A stretch of 64,000 bases of DNA from Paucibacter sp. DJ2R-2 (lineage in GTDB: Bacteria; Pseudomonadota; Gammaproteobacteria; Burkholderiales; Burkholderiaceae_C): the NCBI RefSeq assembly GCF_025717675.1, contig NZ_JAJIRT010000002.1, positions 248,001-312,000 of the forward strand. Reading direction: 5' to 3'. Each line of letters starts with the position of its first letter. The stretch's first letter is position 1. This document shows positions 17,987-30,149 of this stretch, one piece after another. Under the pieces are notes generated by a model. That model saw nothing but the letters and a program-made list of their open reading frames with translations. It searched no databases and was not told the origin of the DNA. A program made the position numbers and the translations under genes.

Positions 17987-19942
17987 ATGCAAAAGTCCGA
18001 TGCCGTCGCGTCCCTGGGTCAGCACAGCTTGCTCTTGCCCGCCTGGGTCAAAACCGCCTTGCTGGCCAATGATCGATTGAAGCTGTGCCTGACGGTCTTG
18101 CAAGCCGCCGCCAGCCATGCCATGGCCCCCAAACAGGCCTTGCCGGATTTGCGTCACGAGATGGCCGCTGCCAGCCTGGACGCCGCCTGGCTGCGCGAGA
18201 TGCCGGCCCAGGCCAGCCGCGAGGGCGACGATGTGCTGCTGCCCGAGCTGCCCCGCCTGGCCGCCCAGTTGGCCGAGGATCTGGCCTTGATGGCGCGGCC
18301 CTTGCTGCAAACCGAAACCGACCGAGCCACGCGTGAGCGGGTGGCACGATGGACCTCGACCCTGGAAGCCGTGCAAGACGAGGTGCTCAGCCCCGCCCTG
18401 CTGCGCAGCTTGAGCCACGGCCACCGTGCCAAGCATGGCGAGGCCGACGACGACAGCTTGCACCTCTTGGTGATGGACCTGCACAAGCAGCTCAACCAGC
18501 TGGCAGCCAGCCTGGCCAGCGAGTTGATCGAGGGCGCCCATGTCTGGGCCTTGGAAGACGGCGACCGGCCGCGTGTGGCCGCCTTTATGCGCGGCCTGCA
18601 GCGCACCGCACCCTTGAAGTTCGACCACCCCGGTTTGGATACGGCAGCCACGCGCGACAGCGAGCGATTGCTGATCCAAAACGATATCGGCACCAATGAT
18701 GCCCATGTGCTGGTGCTGCAAGTTCAAGGCTTGGCCATCAGCCTGACCTATTCGGACCTGCACAAAACCCGCTTCGAGTTTTTCCAGGCGCAACTGGCCG
18801 CCTATGGCGCGCAATGGTCCGTGCCCGAAGCTCGTGTCTCGGCGGGGCTGAATCAGGGTGAGGCCTATCAGCTGGGCACCGCGCGCTTTGAGGCCGAGGA
18901 CGAGGCCCAGCTCTTGTGGATGCTGGAGGGCGTGGCTTCGCGCATCGTCTTTTTGATCGATTGGAACCGGGCCCGCAAGCGGCTGCTGAACTTTGTCGGC
19001 AAGCGCGAGGCGATTGCGGTGCTGGCCGAGGCGGCCCGGCAGGACGTGGGCCATATGGCCTGGTTGAAGACCGGCGGCGAGCGCATGTTGTTCGAAGCCA
19101 TGCAGGCGCTGGGGGCCGATGCCTTTCGCATTGGCGATCGCTTGGACGAGGTCTTGGGCCAGAGCGGCGCACAGGCCTTTTTGAACGAAGTGCTGCGCAT
19201 GGCCTCGCAAGCTTTGCTGCAAAAACAGCCCAGCGCCCTGGTGGCCGATGAAACCCGTTTGCTGCTGGCGCGGCAGTTGCAACAGCGTGCGCCCGAGTTT
19301 GACCTCTTGGCCGAACACGCGGCCTATTGCCAGACCCTGGCCGAGGGCATCAGTCAGGCCCTGGCCCATGGCTGGGAGCAGGACAAAGAAGCCGCCGCCA
19401 AGCTGGCTCAGCGCGCCAAGACCTGGGAGCGCCAGGCCGACCATCTGGTCATGCAAGCCCGCGAGCGCGCGCGCCGCCAGCCACGCTGGGCACCGTTCGC
19501 GGGCCTCTTGCAAACGGCGGACGATGCGGCCGATGCGTTGGAGGAATGCGCGTTCTTGCTGAGCTTGATCGCCGACCACCATCACCAGGGCTGGAACCGC
19601 GAACTGCGCGAGCTGCTGTCGCAGCTGGCGCAAGCGGTGCTGCATGCGACGCAAGAGCAGGTCAAGGCGGTGGCCGTGGCGCGCGGGCTGAATGCGGCCA
19701 GCGAAGCCGCCGAGCATGATGAGTTTGTGGCCGCCACTTGGCAGGTCTTGCGCGCCGAGCGGCAATGCGATGAGTTGCTGCGGGCCGCCAAACGCTGCAT
19801 GGCCGCCGAGCTGTCGAACGCGGCCGCGCTGATGCTGGTCAACGACCTGGCCAATCAGCTGGAGTTGGCTTCGGACCGCTTGCTCAACGCGGCCTATGCC
19901 CTGCGCGAGCTGGTGTTCAGCAAGACCGAGGTGGGCGCATGA
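17987..19942 (+). CDS. Large protein with C-terminal PhoU-like/DUF47 helical domain
   Basis: A 651-aa, Leu/Ala-rich soluble protein without signal peptide or membrane segments. The last ~220 residues (QDKEAAAKLAQRAKTWERQA, QTADDAADALEECAFLLSLI, LMLVNDLANQLELASDRLL) look like the paired three-helix bundles of PhoU/DUF47 proteins, which bind metal clusters and regulate phosphate transport. The first ~430 residues are not recognised; IVFLIDWNRARKRLLNFVGK near 320 is a conspicuous basic helix. Its stop overlaps the start of the next gene, a half-length PPDK, by 4 bp (ATGA), so the two probably work together. The PhoU-like call is moderate and the function is inference. Confidence 0.6.
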   Translation: MQKSDAVASLGQHSLLLPAWVKTALLANDRLKLCLTVLQAAASHAMAPKQALPDLRHEMAAASLDAAWLREMPAQASREGDDVLLPELPRLAAQLAEDLALMARPLLQTETDRATRERVARWTSTLEAVQDEVLSPALLRSLSHGHRAKHGEADDDSLHLLVMDLHKQLNQLAASLASELIEGAHVWALEDGDRPRVAAFMRGLQRTAPLKFDHPGLDTAATRDSERLLIQNDIGTNDAHVLVLQVQGLAISLTYSDLHKTRFEFFQAQLAAYGAQWSVPEARVSAGLNQGEAYQLGTARFEAEDEAQLLWMLEGVASRIVFLIDWNRARKRLLNFVGKREAIAVLAEAARQDVGHMAWLKTGGERMLFEAMQALGADAFRIGDRLDEVLGQSGAQAFLNEVLRMASQALLQKQPSALVADETRLLLARQLQQRAPEFDLLAEHAAYCQTLAEGISQALAHGWEQDKEAAAKLAQRAKTWERQADHLVMQARERARRQPRWAPFAGLLQTADDAADALEECAFLLSLIADHHHQGWNRELRELLSQLAQAVLHATQEQVKAVAVARGLNAASEAAEHDEFVAATWQVLRAERQCDELLRAAKRCMAAELSNAAALMLVNDLANQLELASDRLLNAAYALRELVFSKTEVGA

Positions 19943-21594
19943 AAGCGATCAGCACAGCGGCCTTGCCGTCCGAACTCTTCCTCCTGGGCTGCGCCGGCCA
20001 AACGCCCTTGGCTCAGGCCAGCCCGCAAGGCCTGGGATTCAAGGCCTTCAATCTGCTGCGCATGGCGCAAATGGGCTTGCCGGTGCCGCCTGCCTTTGTG
20101 TTGGGCACGAAGTTCTGTGCCGACGCAGCATCGCAGGACCAAGCGGCGAGCCCTGAACTCTGGGCGCCAGCGCTGCAGGCTTTGGAATCGGCCAGTGCAG
20201 CGCTGCGCTTCGGCCATGCGGCCCGGCCCTTGCTGCTGTCGGTGCGTTCCGGTGCGCCGGTGTCCATGCCAGGCATGATGGAAACCCTGCTCAATATTGG
20301 CCTCAACGACGAAACGGTGCAGGGCCTGATTCGCCAGACCGGCAATCCGCGCCTGGCCTGGGATGCCTACCGCCGTCTGATTGCCAGCTTTGCAGAAGTG
20401 GTGGTCGGCCTGCCTGCCGCCTTGTTTGAGGACGAATTGAAGCGGCTCTGCGCCGGTCGTGATGAGCGCCAGCTCGACTTTGCCGAGTTGCGCGGCCTCA
20501 CTCAGCGCTTTCTCCAGCTGTACAACCAAGTCGCCGGGAAGCCGTTTCCGCAGTCACCGCAGCTGCAACTGCAGCAAGCGATTGCCGCGGTGTTTGCTTC
20601 CTGGCAATCCGACAAGGCACGCAGTTACCGTGCTGCCCATGGCATTGCCGACGCCATCGGCACGGCCGTCACCGTGCAGGCCATGGTGTTCGGCAACGCG
20701 GGCGCGCGCTCGGGCGCCGGCGTGGGCTTCACCCGTGACCCGCGCAGCGGAGAACCCGGCTTGTGGGTCGATTTCCTGTTCAACGCCCAGGGCGAAGACG
20801 TGGTCTCGGGGCGCCGAAGCGCCCAGGGGCATGAGCAGTTGCAGCAGGTCTTGCCCCAGGTGTGGGAGGAACTGCAGCAAGCTTGTGCGCTCTTGGAACG
20901 CCAGATGGCCGAGATGCAGGACTTCGAATTCACCGTACAGGATGGGCGTTTTTACTTGCTGCAGACGCGGGACGGCAAACGCAGCCCGCAGGCCCAGGCG
21001 CGAATTGCGCTGGATCTATGCCGCGAGGGCGTGATCGATCAGGCGACCGCCCAGCAACGTTGTGCGGGTCTGGACGGCGAAGCCTTGCGGCTCAGCCGTG
21101 TGCTCGCCGCCGATGGACAAGCAGCACAAGCGCTGGCACGGGCGCAGGCGGCCAGCACTGGCGTAGTGGCAGGCCGCATCGTCCTTGACGAAGCCGGCGC
21201 GCGGGCAGCCCAGGCGGCCGGTCAGCCGGCGGTGCTGCTGCGGCGTGACGCCGAGACCGCCGACAGCGCCGCGCTGGCGCTCACCCTCGGGCTCTTGACG
21301 CAAAACGGCGCGCGCACCTCGCATGCCGCCGTGGTGGCACGGCAGATGGGCAAGGTCTGCCTGGTCGCCTGCGAAGGCATGTGGCTGGACGAAGCCGCGC
21401 GCGAGGTCCACTTCGGCGACCGCTGCTTGCGCGAAGGTGACTGGATCAGCCTGGACGGCAACGAGGCCTGTGTCTATGCCGGGCAGGTGCAGACCGAATG
21501 GTGGTGCCCGCCCGGACTGTTGGCGGAGTTGGAACAGCTGAGGCAAGACCTGCCACCCGCTCACACCCAGGCAGAGCAGCTTGTGGGTGCTTGA
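19939..21594 (+). CDS. PEP/pyruvate dikinase-like protein lacking the PEP-binding TIM barrel
   Basis: A 551-aa protein. Residues ~30-345 match the ATP-grasp (PPDK_N) domain: GFKAFNLLRMAQMGLPVPPAF, then SVRSGAPVSMPGMMETLLNI, the phosphate-binding loop of pyruvate phosphate dikinase. Residues ~405-500 are the swivelling phosphohistidine domain with GARTSHAAVVARQMGK; His462 is the expected phospho-acceptor. True PPDK (about 880 aa) continues with a PEP/pyruvate barrel, and that domain is absent. It can therefore be expected to phosphorylate its own His from ATP, but not to make PEP by itself. Coupled (ATGA overlap) to a PhoU-like protein, which might be acceptor or regulator. Confidence 0.75.
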   Translation: MKAISTAALPSELFLLGCAGQTPLAQASPQGLGFKAFNLLRMAQMGLPVPPAFVLGTKFCADAASQDQAASPELWAPALQALESASAALRFGHAARPLLLSVRSGAPVSMPGMMETLLNIGLNDETVQGLIRQTGNPRLAWDAYRRLIASFAEVVVGLPAALFEDELKRLCAGRDERQLDFAELRGLTQRFLQLYNQVAGKPFPQSPQLQLQQAIAAVFASWQSDKARSYRAAHGIADAIGTAVTVQAMVFGNAGARSGAGVGFTRDPRSGEPGLWVDFLFNAQGEDVVSGRRSAQGHEQLQQVLPQVWEELQQACALLERQMAEMQDFEFTVQDGRFYLLQTRDGKRSPQAQARIALDLCREGVIDQATAQQRCAGLDGEALRLSRVLAADGQAAQALARAQAASTGVVAGRIVLDEAGARAAQAAGQPAVLLRRDAETADSAALALTLGLLTQNGARTSHAAVVARQMGKVCLVACEGMWLDEAAREVHFGDRCLREGDWISLDGNEACVYAGQVQTEWWCPPGLLAELEQLRQDLPPAHTQAEQLVGA

Positions 21595-21764: not shown

Positions 21765-22586
21765 TCAGCCAGTCAGCAGCCGCATCAAGGCTGCGGGCTC
21801 GGCAGCGGCCAATGAGCGCTCGTCCTGCTCATCCTTCAGCGCCACGCCGCTGAGCTTCCGGGCACGTGCCTCGCGCAGCAGCGCATGCAGCTTGGCGGCG
21901 GCGGCGGGCGCCGGCAGGCCTTCGGGGCGCACATTCGAGATGCAATTGCGTTCGGCATCGACCAGACCCACGCGCGGCGCCCAGCTGAAATAGATGCCCA
22001 GACTGTCCGGCGCCGACAAGCCCGGCCGCTCGCCAATCAGAACCACCACGCAGCGGGCCTTGAGGCGCGCGCCAATCTCGTCACCGATGGCCACGCGGGC
22101 CTGGACCGCCACCACCGGCGGCGCCCAGTTCCAGCCGCCCTCGTCCAGCAGGCGCTCGCGCAGTGCGGCCAGCAGCGGCAGGGCTTGGCGCTGCAGCGCC
22201 AGCGCCGAGAGGCCGTCGGCCAGCACAAAGGCCAAGTCCGGGGCCTCGTCAGCGCGGCCCGCCGGCTGCGCGTCCAGCAGCGCGGCACTGGCGGCATCGA
22301 GCTGACGACCCAGATCGGGGCGCTGCAGATAACGGGCACGATCCTCGGCCTGGCTGTGCACCCGAAGCGGCGCTTCGCCGAGCGCGCGCAGGCCCGCCAG
22401 CAAGGCCTCGGCATCCAGCGGCGTGTGCACGGCATCGCGGGCCTCGGCATGGGCCTGCTGGAAAGCAAGGTGGGCGGCGGTGGGCACGCTGGCGCCGGCG
22501 CGCCCCAGACCGATGCGTGCGGCCGTGTAGCGGCTGAGGCTGGCCCAGGGCTGCGCGGTCACGGCGGGCTTGGCGGTGGCACTCAT
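21765..22586 (-). CDS. eutC: Ethanolamine ammonia-lyase small subunit
   Basis: A 273-aa protein. Together with EutB it forms the adenosylcobalamin-dependent enzyme that splits ethanolamine to acetaldehyde and ammonia. Characteristic stretches are TAARIGLGRAG, FVLADGLSALA, VVVLIGERPGLSAPDSLGIY (part of the B12-binding face) and ERNCISNVRPEGL. The start overlaps the eutB stop by 4 bp. No microcompartment shell, aldehyde dehydrogenase or permease gene is present, so this is the simple catabolic type. No cobalamin riboswitch was seen. Confidence 0.95.
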   Translation of the reverse strand: MSATAKPAVTAQPWASLSRYTAARIGLGRAGASVPTAAHLAFQQAHAEARDAVHTPLDAEALLAGLRALGEAPLRVHSQAEDRARYLQRPDLGRQLDAASAALLDAQPAGRADEAPDLAFVLADGLSALALQRQALPLLAALRERLLDEGGWNWAPPVVAVQARVAIGDEIGARLKARCVVVLIGERPGLSAPDSLGIYFSWAPRVGLVDAERNCISNVRPEGLPAPAAAAKLHALLREARARKLSGVALKDEQDERSLAAAEPAALMRLLTG

Positions 22587-23953
22587 GCCCGCTCCAGCAG
22601 CGCGGCAAAGCCGGCCGGCAAGGCGTCTGCCAGCCGCGGCGAGCCGCCGGGCTCGAACACGCCCATGCGCTGCAACCAGGCCTCGAACTCAGGCGCCGGC
22701 CGCAGGCCCAGCAGGCGGCGCATCGCCAGTGCATCGTGAAAGCTGGTGCTCTGGTAGCCGAGCATGATGTCGTCCGAGCCGGGCACGCCCATGATGTAGT
22801 TGCAGCCGGCAGCGCACAGCATCGTCAGCAGGCTGTCGACATCGTCGACATCGGCCTCGGCATGGTTGGTGAAGCACACGTCCACGCCCATGGGCAAGCC
22901 CAGCAGCTTGCCGCAGCAATGGTCTTCCAGCCCGGCGCGCAGGATCTGCTTGCCGTCGAACAGATACTCCGGCCCGATGAAGCCCACCACGCTGTTGACC
23001 AGGAGCGGCTCGAAGCGCCGCGCCACCGCATAGGCGCGGCACTCCAGCGTCTGCTGGTCGCAGCCCTGGTGCGTGCCGCTGGACAGCGCACTGCCTTGGC
23101 CGGTTTCGAAATACATCACCTGGCGCCCACCGCGTTGCAGCGCCAGCGCGGCTGCCTGCGCCTCGGCGAGCAGGTCCAGCGTGATGCCGAAGCCGCGGTT
23201 GGCGCCCTCGGTGCCGGCGATGGACTGGAACACCAGGTCCACCGGCGCACCGCGATGAATCGCTTCCAGCGTGGTTGTCACATGGGTCAGCACGCAGCTC
23301 TGCGTCGGGATCTCGTGGCGGCGGATCACCGCATCGAGCATCTGCAGCAAGCGCATCACCTGGGGCAGGTTGTCGGTGGCCGGGTTGATGCCGATGACGG
23401 CATCGCCCGCGCCCATCAGCAGCCCGTCCAGCAGGCTGGCGGCGATGCCGGCCTCGTCGTCGGTCGGGTGATTGGGCTGCAGCCGCGTGGCCAGCCGCCC
23501 ACGCAGGCCCAGCGTCGAGCGAAAGCGGGTGACGACCTCGCAGCGCTGCGCGATCAACATCAGGTCCTGCGCCCGGCACAGCTTGCTCAGCGCGGCCACC
23601 ATCTCGGGCGTCAGGCCGGGTGCGATCGCCGCCGTGTCCAGCGCCTCGGCCAGCAGCGCATCGCGCAGGCCACCCACGGTCAGATGCGCAATCGGCGCAA
23701 AGGCCGCGGCATCGTGCGTGTCGATGATCAGCCGCGTGACCTCGTCGCTCTCGTAGGGCACGACGGCCTCGTTCAAAAACGCCTTCAGCGGCAGATCGGC
23801 CAGCGCCAGCTGCGCGGCCACCCGCTCTCGCGCATCGGCAGCCGCCACACCCGCCAGCTCATCCCCCGAGCGCCGCGGGCTCGCCTTGGCCAGCAAGCTG
23901 CGCAGGTCCGCAAAATGAAAGCGCTCAGCGCCAAGACGGTGAACATAGGCCAT
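22583..23953 (-). CDS. eutB: Ethanolamine ammonia-lyase large subunit
   Basis: A 456-aa protein, the usual length. It is the catalytic TIM-barrel subunit that binds ethanolamine at the B12 cofactor. Family motifs: LQPNHPTDDEAGIAASLLDG, GDAVIGINPATDN, THVTTTLEAI, FQSIAGTEGANRGFGI, MYFETGQGSALSSGTHQGCD and GVDVCFTNHAEADVDD. No strong ribosome site is visible before the ATG at 23953, but the conserved N-terminus (HFADLRSLLAKASPRRSGDELAG) shows the start is about right. First gene of the eutBC operon. Confidence 0.95.
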   Translation of the reverse strand: MAYVHRLGAERFHFADLRSLLAKASPRRSGDELAGVAAADARERVAAQLALADLPLKAFLNEAVVPYESDEVTRLIIDTHDAAAFAPIAHLTVGGLRDALLAEALDTAAIAPGLTPEMVAALSKLCRAQDLMLIAQRCEVVTRFRSTLGLRGRLATRLQPNHPTDDEAGIAASLLDGLLMGAGDAVIGINPATDNLPQVMRLLQMLDAVIRRHEIPTQSCVLTHVTTTLEAIHRGAPVDLVFQSIAGTEGANRGFGITLDLLAEAQAAALALQRGGRQVMYFETGQGSALSSGTHQGCDQQTLECRAYAVARRFEPLLVNSVVGFIGPEYLFDGKQILRAGLEDHCCGKLLGLPMGVDVCFTNHAEADVDDVDSLLTMLCAAGCNYIMGVPGSDDIMLGYQSTSFHDALAMRRLLGLRPAPEFEAWLQRMGVFEPGGSPRLADALPAGFAALLERA

Positions 23954-26141: not shown

Positions 26142-29100
26142 ATGCCCATTCGTTTTGATCTGATCATCACCGCCGACGATTCAAACCGCAACGCCGAGTT
26201 CCGCCTTTGTGATGCCCAAGGCGTGCAACTCGCCTATCAAAAGACGGCTTTCAAGGACATCCCGGTGAGCCAACAGCGGGCTCTATTTGATTTGCGCAAC
26301 CACCTGCGCCTGTATGTCGAAGCGGGCCAGCAACAGGCGGCCGTGGCGGCCGTTGGTGTGTGCATTGCCGAAACGATCCTGGGCAAAGACATCTTTACCC
26401 AACTCTGGGCATCGCAAGCGCAGCGCACGTTGTGCATCCAGTTGCCAGGCGCTGGGGACAGTGAAAACCACCTCGCTGCCGCGCTGGCTCGTGTGCCCTG
26501 GGAGATCGCCCGGCCGGCCGCCGATCACGCGACCCTTGGCGAGCGCAACCTGCTCGTCCGTGTGGTTCACGACATGCAGGCTACGGCGTCAACGCCAATT
26601 GAGCTAGGGGCGGACGAAGCCCTGCGCGTGCTTTTTGTGTTTGCCGAAGCGCGCGGCTCGCGTCCGCTGGGCGCGCGCAGGGAGCGGCGGGAGCTGTTGC
26701 GGCTCTTTGAGAAGGAAATCTACCCGCAGCGCCGCATCGTTGCGCACTTCCTCACCCATGGCGTCACCCGCGAGCGGCTGACAGCGCAGATTCAGGAAAA
26801 CGGCGGCTACCACGTCGTCCACTGGAGCGGGCACGGCCACATGAACCTGCTTGAACTCTGCAAGCCCGGCGGCGCGAGCGACCGCCTCTCTGGCGGGGAA
26901 CTGCTTGAAATCTTCACGGATGCTGGCGGCTTTCTCCCAAGGCTGTTCTTCCTCAGCGCCTGCCATTCCGGCGACATCCTGCAGGTGAAGGACTGGAGTG
27001 ACTTCCTCGCCGTCGCCCAGGGCCAAGAGCCGGGCACGAGAGAAGCCAACACCAAGGACCTCGATCTCAAAGAACAGCCCGGCTACACCGGCACCGCCCA
27101 TGCGCTGCTGCAAGGCGGCGTGCCCTCCGTGGTGGCCATGCGTTACGCCGTGGGTGACGACTATGCCCGAGAGGCGGCGGTGGAGTTTTACCGCGCCCTG
27201 TTCGCCCACGCCCAGCCGAAGAACGTCGCCGCCGCCCTCACCCAGGCGCGGCAGGCCATGCTGAATAGCAAAAAGCATAACCAAGCGCACTTCAGCGTGT
27301 GCGACCACGCCACGCCCGTGCTCTACGGCGAGGAACAGCCCGGCCTCAGCCTTTTGACCGGGCGCAGCCCAGCCCGCAATCCGCGCAATCCCCGCCTGCA
27401 CACCATCACCGAGCTGAGTACGGCAGGGCACGAGCATTTCGTCGGGCGCACCTGGGAATTGGTCGGGCTGGGGGCGGACTTCATCGGCTCCAGCACCGGC
27501 GTGGAGGTGAAGCCGGTTGCCGTCATCACCGGGCTGGGCGGCATGGGCAAGACCGCGCTGACCGCCGAGGCCTTGGCGTTGTGGGAAACGCGCTTTGAGT
27601 GGGTGCTGCTGTATCAGGCCAAGCCGAATGCGCTCGGCTTTGACGCCACATTGCGCGACATCCACATGAAGCTCATGGGCGAGCTGAAGCTTTACCACGA
27701 CCATGTGCGGGCCCATCCCGCCGATGCCATCCACCGCGATGCCAGCGCCGAGTTCACCGGCCCCCTACGGCTGGAGCGGCTCACGCGCAACCTCCTGCGC
27801 GCACTGAAGGACGAGCCCATCCTCCTCGTGCTGGACAACTTTGAGACCAACCTCAAGGACGCCGACCCCGCCACCCCATATTCAGCCTGCCAGGACCCGG
27901 CATGGGAACGTTGCCTGGCCGTGCTGGCCACCGAACTCGTCGGCTCGCCTTCGCGCGTGCTCATCACCTGCCGGCGTCCGCTCACAGCGCTCGCCGGCGG
28001 GGCGGCGCATGCCGTCCCGCTCGGGCCGCTGCCCGGCGCGGAGGCGGCGCTCTACCTGAGGGAGCAGCCCGGCCTGAGACGCTTGGTCTTTGGCGCAGCC
28101 CCTGAGGAGAAGAAGCTCGCACTCCGTCTGCTGAATGCCAGCCGCTTTCACCCACTGCTGATGGATCGGCTGGCGAAGCTGGCGGCGCAGGCGCCGCTGC
28201 GGCCCCAGCTGCTGGCCGCACTCGATGCGCTGGATAAAACCCAGGACTTCGCCCAGCTCCCGGCGCTTTTTGCCACCACGCCGGGTGATGCAAAAGAACT
28301 GGCCTACCTCGACGATGCGCTGGCTTCTTCGCTCGACCAGCTCATCCGCGACTTGGGCCCGGATGCCCGCCGCCTGCTCTGGATCATCGCCTTGGCCAAT
28401 CAGCCCGAGGCGCAGGGGCTGGTTCAGCGCTTGTGGAGCGGGGAGACGCACGAGCAGCAGCAACTCCGGCAGATCAAGCAGATGCTAGACATGGTGCCGC
28501 AACTCCCGCCGGAGATGCCGGCGGAGTTGAACGCGATGCCACCGGAGCTTCGCGCGATGCTCGACGCCCTGCCGGCCGAGCGGCCGGCGCGGCCGGATTT
28601 GGCGCCGCTGTTGGCCCGGCTGGTGAGCGTGGGGCTGCTCACAGAGGAGCGCGACGCACCGGACGACGCCAACCCGAATCTCAGCTGCCACGAACTCGTC
28701 CGCGAACGCATCCGCGCCTGGATGGCGCAGCGGCCGCAGGACCATGCGGAGTGGACCGAAAACACCATCCGCCTCGCCTACGCCGAGCGGCTGGAGGCTG
28801 TGTATGACGCGCTCCAGCACCAGAACATGAGCGCCGCTCTAGAGGCAGGCAGCCGCGCCGTGGTCTATTGCGTGCAGGCCGGGGCCTGGGATCGGATGGG
28901 CGGTTTTGCCAGCCGCCTGGTCACAAGCACCAACGATCCGCGCTTGCTGGAGACGCTGATCCCGCATCTCCAGATGGCCGCCGAATCCACCTCTGAGGGC
29001 CGGCCGCGCTGGACCTGCCTCGGCAACCTCGCCGATGCACTGAAGAACAGTGGCCGTCCCGATGCCAGCCTGCTCTTCTACGAGCAGGCCGCTGCCCAGG

Positions 29101-30149
29101 CCCGCACCGTCGCCGAGGCGGGAGGCGAGGGCTCCCGGCAGGCGTGGTCGGACCTCGGTTGGATCTCTGGCAACTGGGCGCTTGCTCTCCGGGGTGACGG
29201 CAAGATCGACGCGGCGCGCCAGTGTCAGCTCGACAGCGCCGAGGCGGAGAAGCAAGCTGGCAGCCCTGCCATCCAAGTCATCGGCAGCGAGCTGGAGGCC
29301 CTGCGCATTGACATCCTGCAGGGCCAGGTCAAGGCGGCCTTGCCGAAGGTGGAGGCGCGGCTGGCGCAGGTTGATGCGTGGTGGCAGCAACAGCGCTGCG
29401 GCCAGCAAGTGCCCGAGGCCCCGGATGCAGAGGTCCTCGCTCGCGCGTTCATCAGCGCGCTCGACATTGCCACAGACGCTCACTTTGCCGAGAAGGACTG
29501 GCCCTCCGCCCTGCGCCGCCTTGAAGCCATCCTGGAGGTGAAACGTGCGCTGGAGCGCCCGGCGGAGGACATCGGCACCACGCGGATGAACCGCGCCAAC
29601 GTGCTAAATCGGCTCGGCGATTTCGGCGAGGCCAAGGCCGAGCTGGAGGCCTGCCTCACGCTGTTCCAGTACGACCCGGCCAGGAGCGCCAGGGTGCTCA
29701 GCTCCCTCGCGGACTTGTTCGACAAGCAAGGCGACATCGCCCAGGCCATCATCCAGCAGCGCCGAGCCCTTGCCCTGCGCGAAGCTCTTCCTGATCCCGC
29801 TGCCCGCGCCGGCTCGCACAACAATCTGGCCCACTACCTGGTAAGCAGCGGCAGCCCAGCCGCCCTCGCCGAAGCCCCCCGCCATCAGCTCGCCGCCCTG
29901 GTTTACCGCCTGGTCGCCGGGCTGGGACAGCAGCTCCAGACCTCGCTGCACAACTACGGCGTTCGTTTCCGCCGCGCCCATGCCGCCGGCACCGAGCTCT
30001 CAGTCCCGCGCGTGGCGGAGCTGCTCGCCGAGCCCGCCTTTGCCCCGCTGGCGCAATGGTTGCGCCAACGCCAGCTGCCGCTGGAAGAGCTGCAAGCCGA
30101 TGTGGATCGATTCCTCGCCCGAGCCCGACAGGACGGTAAAGCCCCATGA
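26142..30149 (+). CDS. CHAT-protease / P-loop NTPase / TPR multidomain protein
   Basis: A 1335-aa soluble protein with no signal peptide. Residues ~1-400 are a CHAT (caspase-like) domain with the catalytic dyad His231 (HWSGHGHMN) and Cys274 (FFLSACHSGD) and the typical GVPSVVAMRYAV before the last strand. Residues ~425-700 are an NB-ARC/STAND-like NTPase: P-loop GLGGMGKT (464-471), Walker B LLVLDN (Asp565), sensor-like VLITCRR. A winged-helix-like region (~740-890) is followed by TPR-type helical repeats (~900-1270; SGRPDASLLFYEQAAAQ, LGDFGEAKAELEACLTLFQ). All key residues are present. The stop overlaps the next gene by 4 bp. The weak ribosome site leaves the start slightly uncertain. Most likely a sensor-protease of a conflict system. 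Confidence 0.85.
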   Translation: MPIRFDLIITADDSNRNAEFRLCDAQGVQLAYQKTAFKDIPVSQQRALFDLRNHLRLYVEAGQQQAAVAAVGVCIAETILGKDIFTQLWASQAQRTLCIQLPGAGDSENHLAAALARVPWEIARPAADHATLGERNLLVRVVHDMQATASTPIELGADEALRVLFVFAEARGSRPLGARRERRELLRLFEKEIYPQRRIVAHFLTHGVTRERLTAQIQENGGYHVVHWSGHGHMNLLELCKPGGASDRLSGGELLEIFTDAGGFLPRLFFLSACHSGDILQVKDWSDFLAVAQGQEPGTREANTKDLDLKEQPGYTGTAHALLQGGVPSVVAMRYAVGDDYAREAAVEFYRALFAHAQPKNVAAALTQARQAMLNSKKHNQAHFSVCDHATPVLYGEEQPGLSLLTGRSPARNPRNPRLHTITELSTAGHEHFVGRTWELVGLGADFIGSSTGVEVKPVAVITGLGGMGKTALTAEALALWETRFEWVLLYQAKPNALGFDATLRDIHMKLMGELKLYHDHVRAHPADAIHRDASAEFTGPLRLERLTRNLLRALKDEPILLVLDNFETNLKDADPATPYSACQDPAWERCLAVLATELVGSPSRVLITCRRPLTALAGGAAHAVPLGPLPGAEAALYLREQPGLRRLVFGAAPEEKKLALRLLNASRFHPLLMDRLAKLAAQAPLRPQLLAALDALDKTQDFAQLPALFATTPGDAKELAYLDDALASSLDQLIRDLGPDARRLLWIIALANQPEAQGLVQRLWSGETHEQQQLRQIKQMLDMVPQLPPEMPAELNAMPPELRAMLDALPAERPARPDLAPLLARLVSVGLLTEERDAPDDANPNLSCHELVRERIRAWMAQRPQDHAEWTENTIRLAYAERLEAVYDALQHQNMSAALEAGSRAVVYCVQAGAWDRMGGFASRLVTSTNDPRLLETLIPHLQMAAESTSEGRPRWTCLGNLADALKNSGRPDASLLFYEQAAAQARTVAEAGGEGSRQAWSDLGWISGNWALALRGDGKIDAARQCQLDSAEAEKQAGSPAIQVIGSELEALRIDILQGQVKAALPKVEARLAQVDAWWQQQRCGQQVPEAPDAEVLARAFISALDIATDAHFAEKDWPSALRRLEAILEVKRALERPAEDIGTTRMNRANVLNRLGDFGEAKAELEACLTLFQYDPARSARVLSSLADLFDKQGDIAQAIIQQRRALALREALPDPAARAGSHNNLAHYLVSSGSPAALAEAPRHQLAALVYRLVAGLGQQLQTSLHNYGVRFRRAHAAGTELSVPRVAELLAEPAFAPLAQWLRQRQLPLEELQADVDRFLARARQDGKAP

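What the first reader, a model, noticed from the sequence alone, without database searches (positions are those of the whole stretch)
17987..21594. PhoU-like protein coupled to a pyruvate phosphate dikinase that lacks its PEP domain
The dikinase keeps the ATP-grasp domain and the catalytic His462 but stops before the TIM barrel, so it can phosphorylate itself but not form PEP. Its only tight partner is a 651-aa protein ending in PhoU/DUF47-like helices and with an unrecognised 430-aa front. This suggests a phosphorelay or ATP-driven phosphotransfer with an unknown acceptor.
Basis: partly seen in the sequence, partly recalled or inferred. Interest (0 to 1): 0.62.

Follow-up and report, generated by a model that had tools for sequence, protein, structure and literature searches.

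The report
Shortened dikinase with PhoU-tailed partner
A two-gene unit found in scattered proteobacteria pairs an ATP-driven phosphate-loading enzyme that has lost its usual product-making domain with a conserved partner protein of unknown activity ending in a PhoU-like domain; it resembles a recently described regulatory kinase of mycobacteria but has its own partner, and so makes it testable where such an enzyme sends its phosphate.

Summary
Window 17987-19942 encodes a 651-aa protein ending in a PhoU/DUF47-like domain. It overlaps by 4 bases a 551-aa pyruvate phosphate dikinase (PPDK) relative (19939-21594) that keeps the ATP-grasp domain and swivel histidine (His462) but lacks the PEP barrel. 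Only two other proteins of the genome, PtsI-like and PEP synthase-like, carry a barrel. The pair is a real unit: neighbours in the same order in 35 of 35 loci examined, and present in exactly the same 18 of 200 family genomes. Catalytic residues, six partner histidines and four E/D-x3-D motifs are conserved in 35 of 35. The short-dikinase kind is already in print: VadK (Rv1127c) autophosphorylates on the matching histidine and regulates metabolism (PMC13400623). The window's enzyme forms a separate clade (100/100) with a different, unnamed partner. It shares with the VadK-type small partners a short motif, S-x-H-x6-H. One genome fuses such a small partner behind the short dikinase, where the barrel would be. 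Best reading: the partner takes the barrel's place as recipient of the phosphohistidine. New variant of a known kind.

The parts
17987..19942 (+). Partner protein, 651 aa, start ATG, stop TGA
   Evidence: ORF; followed by a short dikinase in 35 of 35 loci; 79 invariant positions in 35 sequences
17987..18436 (+). Partner aa 1-150, N-terminal mostly helical region
   Evidence: AlphaFold models; 11 of 150 positions invariant
18452..18484 (+). Partner aa 156-166, motif D-S-L-H-L-L-V-M-D-L-H (His159, His166 invariant), shared in short form with the small partners of VadK-type dikinases
   Evidence: 35 of 35 keep both His, 33 of 35 the Ser; profile match 26.5 against at most 18.9 in 60 column shuffles; 14 of 14 small partners examined
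18518..18985 (+). Partner aa 178-333, alpha/beta domain with invariant H214, D233, D238, H240, D257, H259, D325
   Evidence: 39 of 156 positions invariant, half of all invariant positions; secondary structure; fold matches weak
18986..19291 (+). Partner aa 334-435, helical region with invariant His356
19292..19939 (+). Partner aa 436-651, PhoU/DUF47-like domain with four E/D-x3-D motifs (E481-D485, D512-D516, E591-D595, E626-D630)
   Evidence: PF01865 above cut-off; VIA-align Z 24.1, rmsd 2.4, 203 residues to 3l39; motifs acidic at both ends in 35 of 35
19939..19942 (+). ATGA overlap of partner stop and dikinase start (translational coupling likely)
19939..21594 (+). Short dikinase, 551 aa, PPDK relative without the PEP/pyruvate barrel
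20032..21078 (+). ATP-grasp domain, about aa 32-380, with Lys35, Arg103, Glu330, Gln342, Arg344
   Evidence: PF01326; alignment to solved PPDK; 35 of 35 conserved; that these are the catalytic residues is recalled
21223..21465 (+). Swivel (PEP-utilizers mobile) domain, PF00391 match aa 429-509
21322..21324 (+). Codon of the catalytic His462 (RTSHAAVVAR)
   Evidence: H462 and T460 in 35 of 35

Best explanation
A VadK-like two-protein phosphohistidine system. Step 1, inferred from homology and residue conservation: the short dikinase transfers phosphate from ATP to its own His462 (as a PPDK relative, probably giving AMP and pyrophosphate). Step 2, inferred: with no barrel to turn to, the swivel domain docks on the partner, whose conserved S-x-H-x6-H helix and His/Asp-rich alpha/beta domain stand in for the missing third domain and receive or sense the phosphate. 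Step 3, inferred: the PhoU-like tail, if it binds metal as its motifs suggest, makes the outcome depend on phosphate or metal state. The output probably adjusts acetyl-phosphate, acyl-CoA and PHA metabolism, whose genes recur beside the pair, much as VadK adjusts the methylcitrate cycle.
For: Neighbours in the same order and strand in 35 of 35 loci, down to 33% partner identity. The same 18 of 200 family genomes have the full partner and the partner-type short dikinase; none has only one. Residues matching PPDK's Lys, Arg, Glu, Gln, Arg and His of the active site are kept in 35 of 35. PF02896 in the genome only in a PtsI-like and a PEP synthase-like protein. Short dikinases of this pair form one clade (100/100), and all short or small-partner-linked relatives together lie opposite the 9 full-length enzymes (88/83). 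In 9 of 14 plasmid loci with a VadK-type small partner, it lies directly beside a dikinase, and one genome (G038, L033) fuses it to the C-terminus of a short dikinase, where the barrel sits in PPDK. Small partners and the window's partner share S-x-H-x6-H. Published: VadK autophosphorylates on His422; [quoted passage not shown] PTA, AckA, FabI or PhaC within 5 kb in 18 of 35 loci in different arrangements; GpmI, cytochrome c and EutB of the window recur in 0 of the 34 others.
Against: No phosphorylation or binding was measured. The link between the two partner families is confined to about 20 profile columns (E 0.0028 and probability 10.9% against the N-terminal part; E 0.013 and 3.3% against the whole partner). 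A profile of the small family gives the 35 window-type partners at most 5.4 bits, so whole-domain homology is not shown. Two small partners sit beside dikinase relatives of about 850 aa (L068, L153) whose extra 330 residues match no barrel (no PF02896 up to E 0.1); what that tail does is unknown, so a simple 'partner replaces barrel' rule may not hold. In 5 of 14 plasmid loci the small partner is not directly beside a dikinase. 17 of 35 loci show none of the four acetyl-P/PHA genes within 5 kb. Many of the 35 loci are close relatives, so counts are not independent.
Confidence: 0.5

Rival explanations
1. Small-molecule dikinase: the partner's alpha/beta domain binds a metabolite and the swivel histidine phosphorylates it, as in HpeHI, PpsAB or rifampin phosphotransferase; the product feeds acyl or alcohol metabolism.
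For: The alpha/beta domain is enzyme-like in conservation (39 of 79 invariant positions, including H214, D233, D238, H240, D257, H259). HpeHI shows that dikinases can be split over two proteins (PMC12167813, abstract and discussion). VadK-type loci on plasmids lie among CoA ligase, acyl-CoA dehydrogenase, thiolase or P450 genes; in Methylocella the pair follows beta-oxidation genes.
Against: In HpeHI the swivel is on the acceptor subunit, here it is on the dikinase. The dikinase scores 492.7 bits on PPDK and 28.4 on the RPH model. No solved acceptor domain matches the partner's front above weak levels, though this does not exclude one. The own genome has no separate swivel-bearing acceptor protein: its other PF00391 hits are the PEP synthase-like and PtsI-like proteins and a RedH/PigC-like ligase.
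Confidence: 0.3
2. Non-transferring regulator: the phosphorylated dikinase only binds and modulates metabolic enzymes, as proposed for VadK and methylcitrate synthase; the partner is a chaperone or a phosphate/metal sensor.
For: Working model for VadK (PMC13400623, section 16); operonic Rv1126c improved VadK solubility (same paper, find passages). PhoU-like domain with all four acidic motifs.
Against: The partner's alpha/beta domain is more conserved than a mere chaperone or sensor should need (a judgement).
Confidence: 0.13
3. Split PPDK: a separate barrel protein completes the enzyme.
For: None found.
Against: PF02896 occurs only in a PtsI-like and a PEP synthase-like protein of this genome. 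VadK was likewise judged to have no such subunit (PMC13400623, section 5).
Confidence: 0.02
4. Decaying remnant of a PPDK.
For: The barrel is lost.
Against: 94 invariant dikinase positions and 79 invariant partner positions over 35 loci; exact co-occurrence.
Confidence: 0.01

Closest known systems
VadK (Rv1127c) of Mycobacterium tuberculosis and its operonic partner Rv1126c (PMC13400623)
   Same: Short PPDK with ATP-grasp and swivel His only, no barrel; neighbouring partner gene; genomic link to short-chain acyl metabolism
   Different: Separate clade from the VadK-type dikinases in the tree (100/100; Rv1127c itself was not in it); below the NF004531 cut-off (410.9 against 456); partner is a different 651-aa protein with alpha/beta and PhoU-like domains
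Pyruvate phosphate dikinase (EC 2.7.9.1; Clostridium symbiosum, maize)
   Same: ATP-grasp and central domains align over about 500 residues with active-site residues kept
   Different: PEP/pyruvate barrel absent
HpeHI, CreHI, PpsAB phenolic dikinases; rifampin phosphotransferase (PMC12167813)
   Same: ATP-grasp plus swivel-His chemistry, in HpeHI, CreHI and PpsAB spread over two proteins
   Different: Swivel sits on the acceptor subunit there; their ATP-grasp resembles RPH and PEP synthase more than PPDK; no homologous acceptor domain seen here
PhoU / DUF47 proteins (beside Pst or PiT phosphate transporters)
   Same: C-terminal 216 residues: fold and four E/D-x3-D motifs
   Different: Fused to 435 further residues; coupled to a dikinase, not to a transporter; the four DUF47-only hits in related genomes do sit beside PiT

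Membership tests
Pyruvate phosphate dikinase | ATP-grasp domain with active-site residues | tested here: met
Pyruvate phosphate dikinase | Swivel domain with catalytic His | tested here: met
   PF00391 50.5 bits, cut-off 23.1; His462 in 35 of 35
Pyruvate phosphate dikinase | PEP/pyruvate-binding barrel, on the chain or as a subunit | tested here: not met
   match ends at 523 of 874; no barrel subunit found in the genome
VadK-type short dikinase | ATP-grasp plus swivel His without barrel | tested here: met
VadK-type short dikinase | Same clade and model as actinobacterial VadK-type enzymes | tested here: not met
   own clade 100/100; NF004531 410.9 bits, cut-off 456, whereas the M. avium plasmid enzyme scores 867.6
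VadK-type short dikinase | Small (about 200 aa) neighbouring partner of the L052/L054 family | tested here: not met
   partner is a different family; only a short motif is shared
VadK-type short dikinase | ATP-dependent autophosphorylation on the swivel His | not testable with these tools
   -
PhoU/DUF47 (C-terminal domain only) | PF01865 above cut-off, PhoU fold | tested here: met
   27.3 bits against 24.4; Z 24.1, rmsd 2.4, 203 aligned to 3l39; 9 of 11 diverse members match PF01865 at E up to 5
PhoU/DUF47 (C-terminal domain only) | E/D-x3-D motifs | tested here: met
   four motifs acidic at both ends in 35 of 35
PhoU/DUF47 (C-terminal domain only) | Gene beside Pst or PiT transporter | tested here: not met
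   flanking genes in the window are a cytochrome c and eutC
HpeHI-type two-component small-molecule dikinase | ATP-grasp and swivel on separate chains | tested here: not met
   both on the 551-aa chain
HpeHI-type two-component small-molecule dikinase | Rifampin-binding-like acceptor domain | tested here: inconclusive
   no clear fold match for partner aa 1-435

The most novel reading that the evidence does not exclude
Short dikinases with S-x-H-x6-H partners are a third, ATP-fed bacterial phosphohistidine signalling system, beside two-component systems and the PTS: the swivel histidine passes its phosphate to a partner protein (window His159 or His166, or the His/Asp site of the alpha/beta domain) that has taken the place of the PEP barrel, with a PhoU-like metal/phosphate sensor built in, and sets acyl-phosphate/acyl-CoA flux.
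Probability: 0.27. Interest if true: 0.85.

Novelty: new variant of a known kind. Interest (0 to 1): 0.6.

Why it matters
VadK shows that a barrel-less PPDK is a living kinase, but where its phosphate goes is open. This pair gives a version from free-living bacteria with a dedicated, highly conserved partner that carries candidate acceptor histidines. The shared motif and the natural fusion suggest one test for both systems: does the partner replace the barrel as phosphate recipient? If so, a metabolic enzyme was turned into a signalling device by exchanging one domain.

Tried and rejected
Split PPDK with a separate barrel: disfavoured by PF02896 in the own genome. Decay: rejected by conservation. 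Whole-domain homology of partner aa 1-175 with the small Rv1126c-like partners: it looked plausible from two collinear but insignificant BLAST pieces (E 0.95 and 3.4), but profile comparison supports only about 20 columns and the small-family HMM gives at most 5.4 bits; not claimed. Fold search of partner aa 1-435: best rows are T4 MotA C-terminal domain (Z 8.7, rmsd 3.2, 106 residues) and other middling matches; not used. Large glutamate dehydrogenase (E 0.048 and weaker) and YbjN (E 0.32 and weaker; its relative AmyR 0.28) appeared in Foldseek; not used. No PDB sequence relative of the front was found. Promoter/terminator scan: no more than chance. Paper searches for a DUF47-dikinase or PhoU-PPDK pair: (2 papers; 106 papers, 20 seen as listing; none; 30 papers, 10 seen as listing) showed none describing it; the library lacks most subscription papers. 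Rv1126c and Rv1127c sequences were not read; mycobacterial plasmid relatives (L052, L060) stand in for them, and that Rv1126c belongs to their small-partner family is assumed from gene order and size (partly recalled). L033 was labelled 'degenerate' in the tree; one search showed it to be a dikinase-small partner fusion. The second Methylocella tundrae record (L048), in which partner and dikinase are broken into pieces, was left out of the counts; records duplicating a G-genome locus were counted once. L053 was dropped from the tree as a copy of L069. Of 23 plasmid records with a small partner, 14 were examined.
Full report
What is there. In a genome of the Roseateles/Paucibacter group (nearest named relative found: Paucibacter sp. 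Y2R2-4, 95% identical partner) two genes on the + strand overlap by ATGA: 17987-19942 (651 aa) and 19939-21594 (551 aa). The second is a PPDK relative: PF01326 and PF00391, TIGR01828 over 18-508 of 865, and its family profile aligns with solved PPDK over residues 14-523 of 874 at E 1.3e-146. It stops where the PEP/pyruvate barrel would begin. The first ends in a PhoU/DUF47-like domain; the predicted model (mean pLDDT 79.9, pTM 0.52, 8 sequences) matches PhoU-like structure 3l39 with Z 24.1, rmsd 2.4 over 203 residues. Pfam names only PhoU_div in more than one of 11 diverse members (9 of 11); other rows are single members at E 0.0022 or weaker.

It is a unit. Among 39 close relatives, the window's genome included, 8 have the full partner and the same 8 have the adjacent short dikinase; the other dikinase hits were three enzymes with frames of 933-1003 aa and the G038 protein described below, and one weak extra partner hit matched only the PhoU part. 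In 200 genomes of the family, 22 match the partner profile: 18 over its full length and 4 only in the PhoU part; those 4 are DUF47 proteins encoded beside PiT phosphate transporters. The same 18 and no others have the partner-type short dikinase; 13 further genomes have other PPDK relatives, of which G923 and G1032 have short dikinases beside a VadK-type small partner. Wider samples, own genome included in the first two: 2 of 369 in the class, 4 of 398 in the phylum; 4 of 150 in the order of G719. The plasmid collection adds Aquabacterium and Methylocella. In all 35 loci examined the dikinase follows the partner on the same strand, with 0-180 bases between aligned ends, and 443 in L123, where the reading frames are 17 bases apart; several of these loci are near copies of each other.

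It is under selection. Over 35 loci, 94 dikinase and 79 partner positions never change. Dikinase Lys35, Arg103, Glu330, Gln342, Arg344, Thr460 and His462 are kept in 35 of 35; that these correspond to PPDK active-site residues follows from the alignment and recalled PPDK biochemistry. The partner keeps His159, His166, His214, His240, His259, His356 and acidic residues at both ends of four E/D-x3-D motifs (481/485, 512/516, 591/595, 626/630) in 35 of 35. That E(D)XXXD is the PhoU motif is stated in the abstract of PMC5686610 (seen in the listing); that such motifs bind metal in PhoU proteins is recalled. Half of the invariant partner positions (39 of 79) lie in the alpha/beta domain aa 178-333.

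No barrel elsewhere. PF02896 hits in this genome are a PtsI-like (597-aa frame) and a PEP synthase-like (860-aa frame) protein only (named from size and domains). PF00391 (swivel) hits are those two, a RedH/PigC-like ligase and the short dikinase. So neither a split PPDK nor a separate swivel-bearing acceptor protein was found.

What is known. Short PPDK is in print: VadK (Rv1127c) has only the ATP-grasp and kinase domains, autophosphorylates on His422 with ATP and Mg, and affects methylcitrate-cycle flux; it was purified with help of operonic Rv1126c; relatives were noted in Nocardia, Streptomyces, Rhodococcus and Burkholderia ambifaria (PMC13400623: abstract, sections 5, 8, 16, 17, 18 and find passages). 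HpeHI (PMC12167813: abstract, introduction, discussion, find passages) is a two-protein small-molecule dikinase of another type. Paper searches showed no work on a PhoU/DUF47-dikinase pair (two of these lists were cut at 20 of 106 and 10 of 30).

How it relates. Plasmid loci show VadK-type dikinases with a small protein of about 200 aa, often annotated MarR-like. Of 23 plasmid records with it I examined 14: it lies directly beside a dikinase in 9, one gene away in 1 (L065), about 5 kb away in 1 (L069), and no dikinase was seen within about 7 kb in 3 (L064, L066, L071). Of two short dikinases of Azospirillum, L055 had no small partner nearby; L077 was not tested for one. In a tree of 40 dikinases, the 16 with the window's kind of partner form one clade (100/100), apart from the VadK-type group; these, the VadK-type group (which includes the fusion L033 and the roughly 850-aa L056 and L068) and Azospirillum together lie opposite the 9 full-length enzymes with 88/83 support, so one loss of the barrel is possible but not shown. 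The small partners carry S-x-H-x6-H near their C-terminus in 14 of 14; the window's partner carries D-S-L-H-L-L-V-M-D-L-H. Profile comparison finds this stretch alone (score 26.5 against at most 18.9 in 60 column-shuffled controls and 11.8 reversed; E 0.0028 and probability 10.9% against the N-terminal part). A strict form of the motif, drawn from both families, has 95 hits among 12,861 reading frames of 158 sources, all with strings of the kinds seen in the partners (the sources were chosen for the dikinases, and not every hit frame was inspected). In G038 a small partner is fused behind a short dikinase (784-aa frame, 202 bits to the small-family profile, no PF02896). Two small partners sit beside dikinase relatives of about 850 aa (L068, L153) whose tails match no PF02896 up to E 0.1; a third such relative, L056, has a barrel match below cut-off (E 0.0046). 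These speak against a simple replacement rule.

Context. PTA (often fused to MaoC), AckA, FabI or PhaC lie within 5 kb in 18 of 35 loci: 17 of the 27 loci from the window's family, Hydrogenophaga, Aquabacterium and a betaproteobacterial MAG, and in G719, a genome from another class, AckA with a phosphoketolase. Orders and strands differ between loci. The window's other neighbours GpmI, cytochrome c and EutB recur in 0 of 34. In Methylocella the pair follows thiolase, hydroxyacyl-CoA dehydrogenase, acyl-CoA dehydrogenase and enoyl-CoA hydratase genes; in G1031 (L113) it follows an acetyl-CoA synthetase-like enzyme ('propionyl' would be my reading). In 17 of 35 loci none of the four genes was found within 5 kb, and some of those contigs end close by.

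Conclusion. Shown: the pair, its exact co-occurrence in the family sample, conserved active-site residues and acidic motifs, absence of a recognised barrel, a clade of its own. Inferred: autophosphorylation, docking of the swivel on the partner, and a role in acyl-phosphate/acyl-CoA control. Unknown: the final phosphate acceptor. It works like VadK in anatomy, but it is not a member of the VadK-type clade, and it is not a PPDK.

Noticed in passing
L033:1012-3363 (G038, same order): Natural fusion of a short dikinase with a VadK-type small partner (784-aa frame), in the position of the lost PEP barrel.
   Followed up: yes
L052, L060, L061, L062, L065, L067, L069, L070 (plasmids of Mycobacterium, Rhodococcus, Diaphorobacter): Dikinase and small partner lie with a separate 'PEP-utilizing enzyme' and, in several, CoA ligases, acyl-CoA dehydrogenases or phosphatases, suggesting multi-part small-molecule dikinases.
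   Followed up: partly
L070:5426-7597 and L064:5186-7567: The small partner is fused to an AMP-binding (acyl-activating) enzyme in one Rhodococcus plasmid and to a swivel-domain protein in another.
   Followed up: partly
L056:4905-7436 and L066:6989-7561 (Methylibium petroleiphilum PM1 plasmid): An 843-aa PPDK relative with a barrel match below cut-off lies near Rieske oxygenase genes; a small partner lies about 22 kb away near B12-dependent mutase genes.
   Followed up: no
G000 C7, L040:4009-7059 (-): RedH/PigC-like ligase (969.7 bits to RedH, below its cut-off of 1350), near what look like a phosphopantetheinyl transferase, a methyltransferase and an acyl-CoA dehydrogenase (these three read by eye): possible pigment or other natural-product cluster.
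   Followed up: partly
window 26142-30149: 1335-aa protein with CHAT domain, AAA ATPase and TPR repeats.
   Followed up: no
window 21765-23953 (-): eutB and eutC (ethanolamine ammonia-lyase) convergent with the pair; not conserved beside it elsewhere (EutB 0 of 34 other loci).
   Followed up: partly
L048 against L047 (Methylocella tundrae): In one record of the plasmid the pair and the preceding beta-oxidation genes are annotated as many fragments, in the other they are intact; possibly sequencing error in one record.
   Followed up: no
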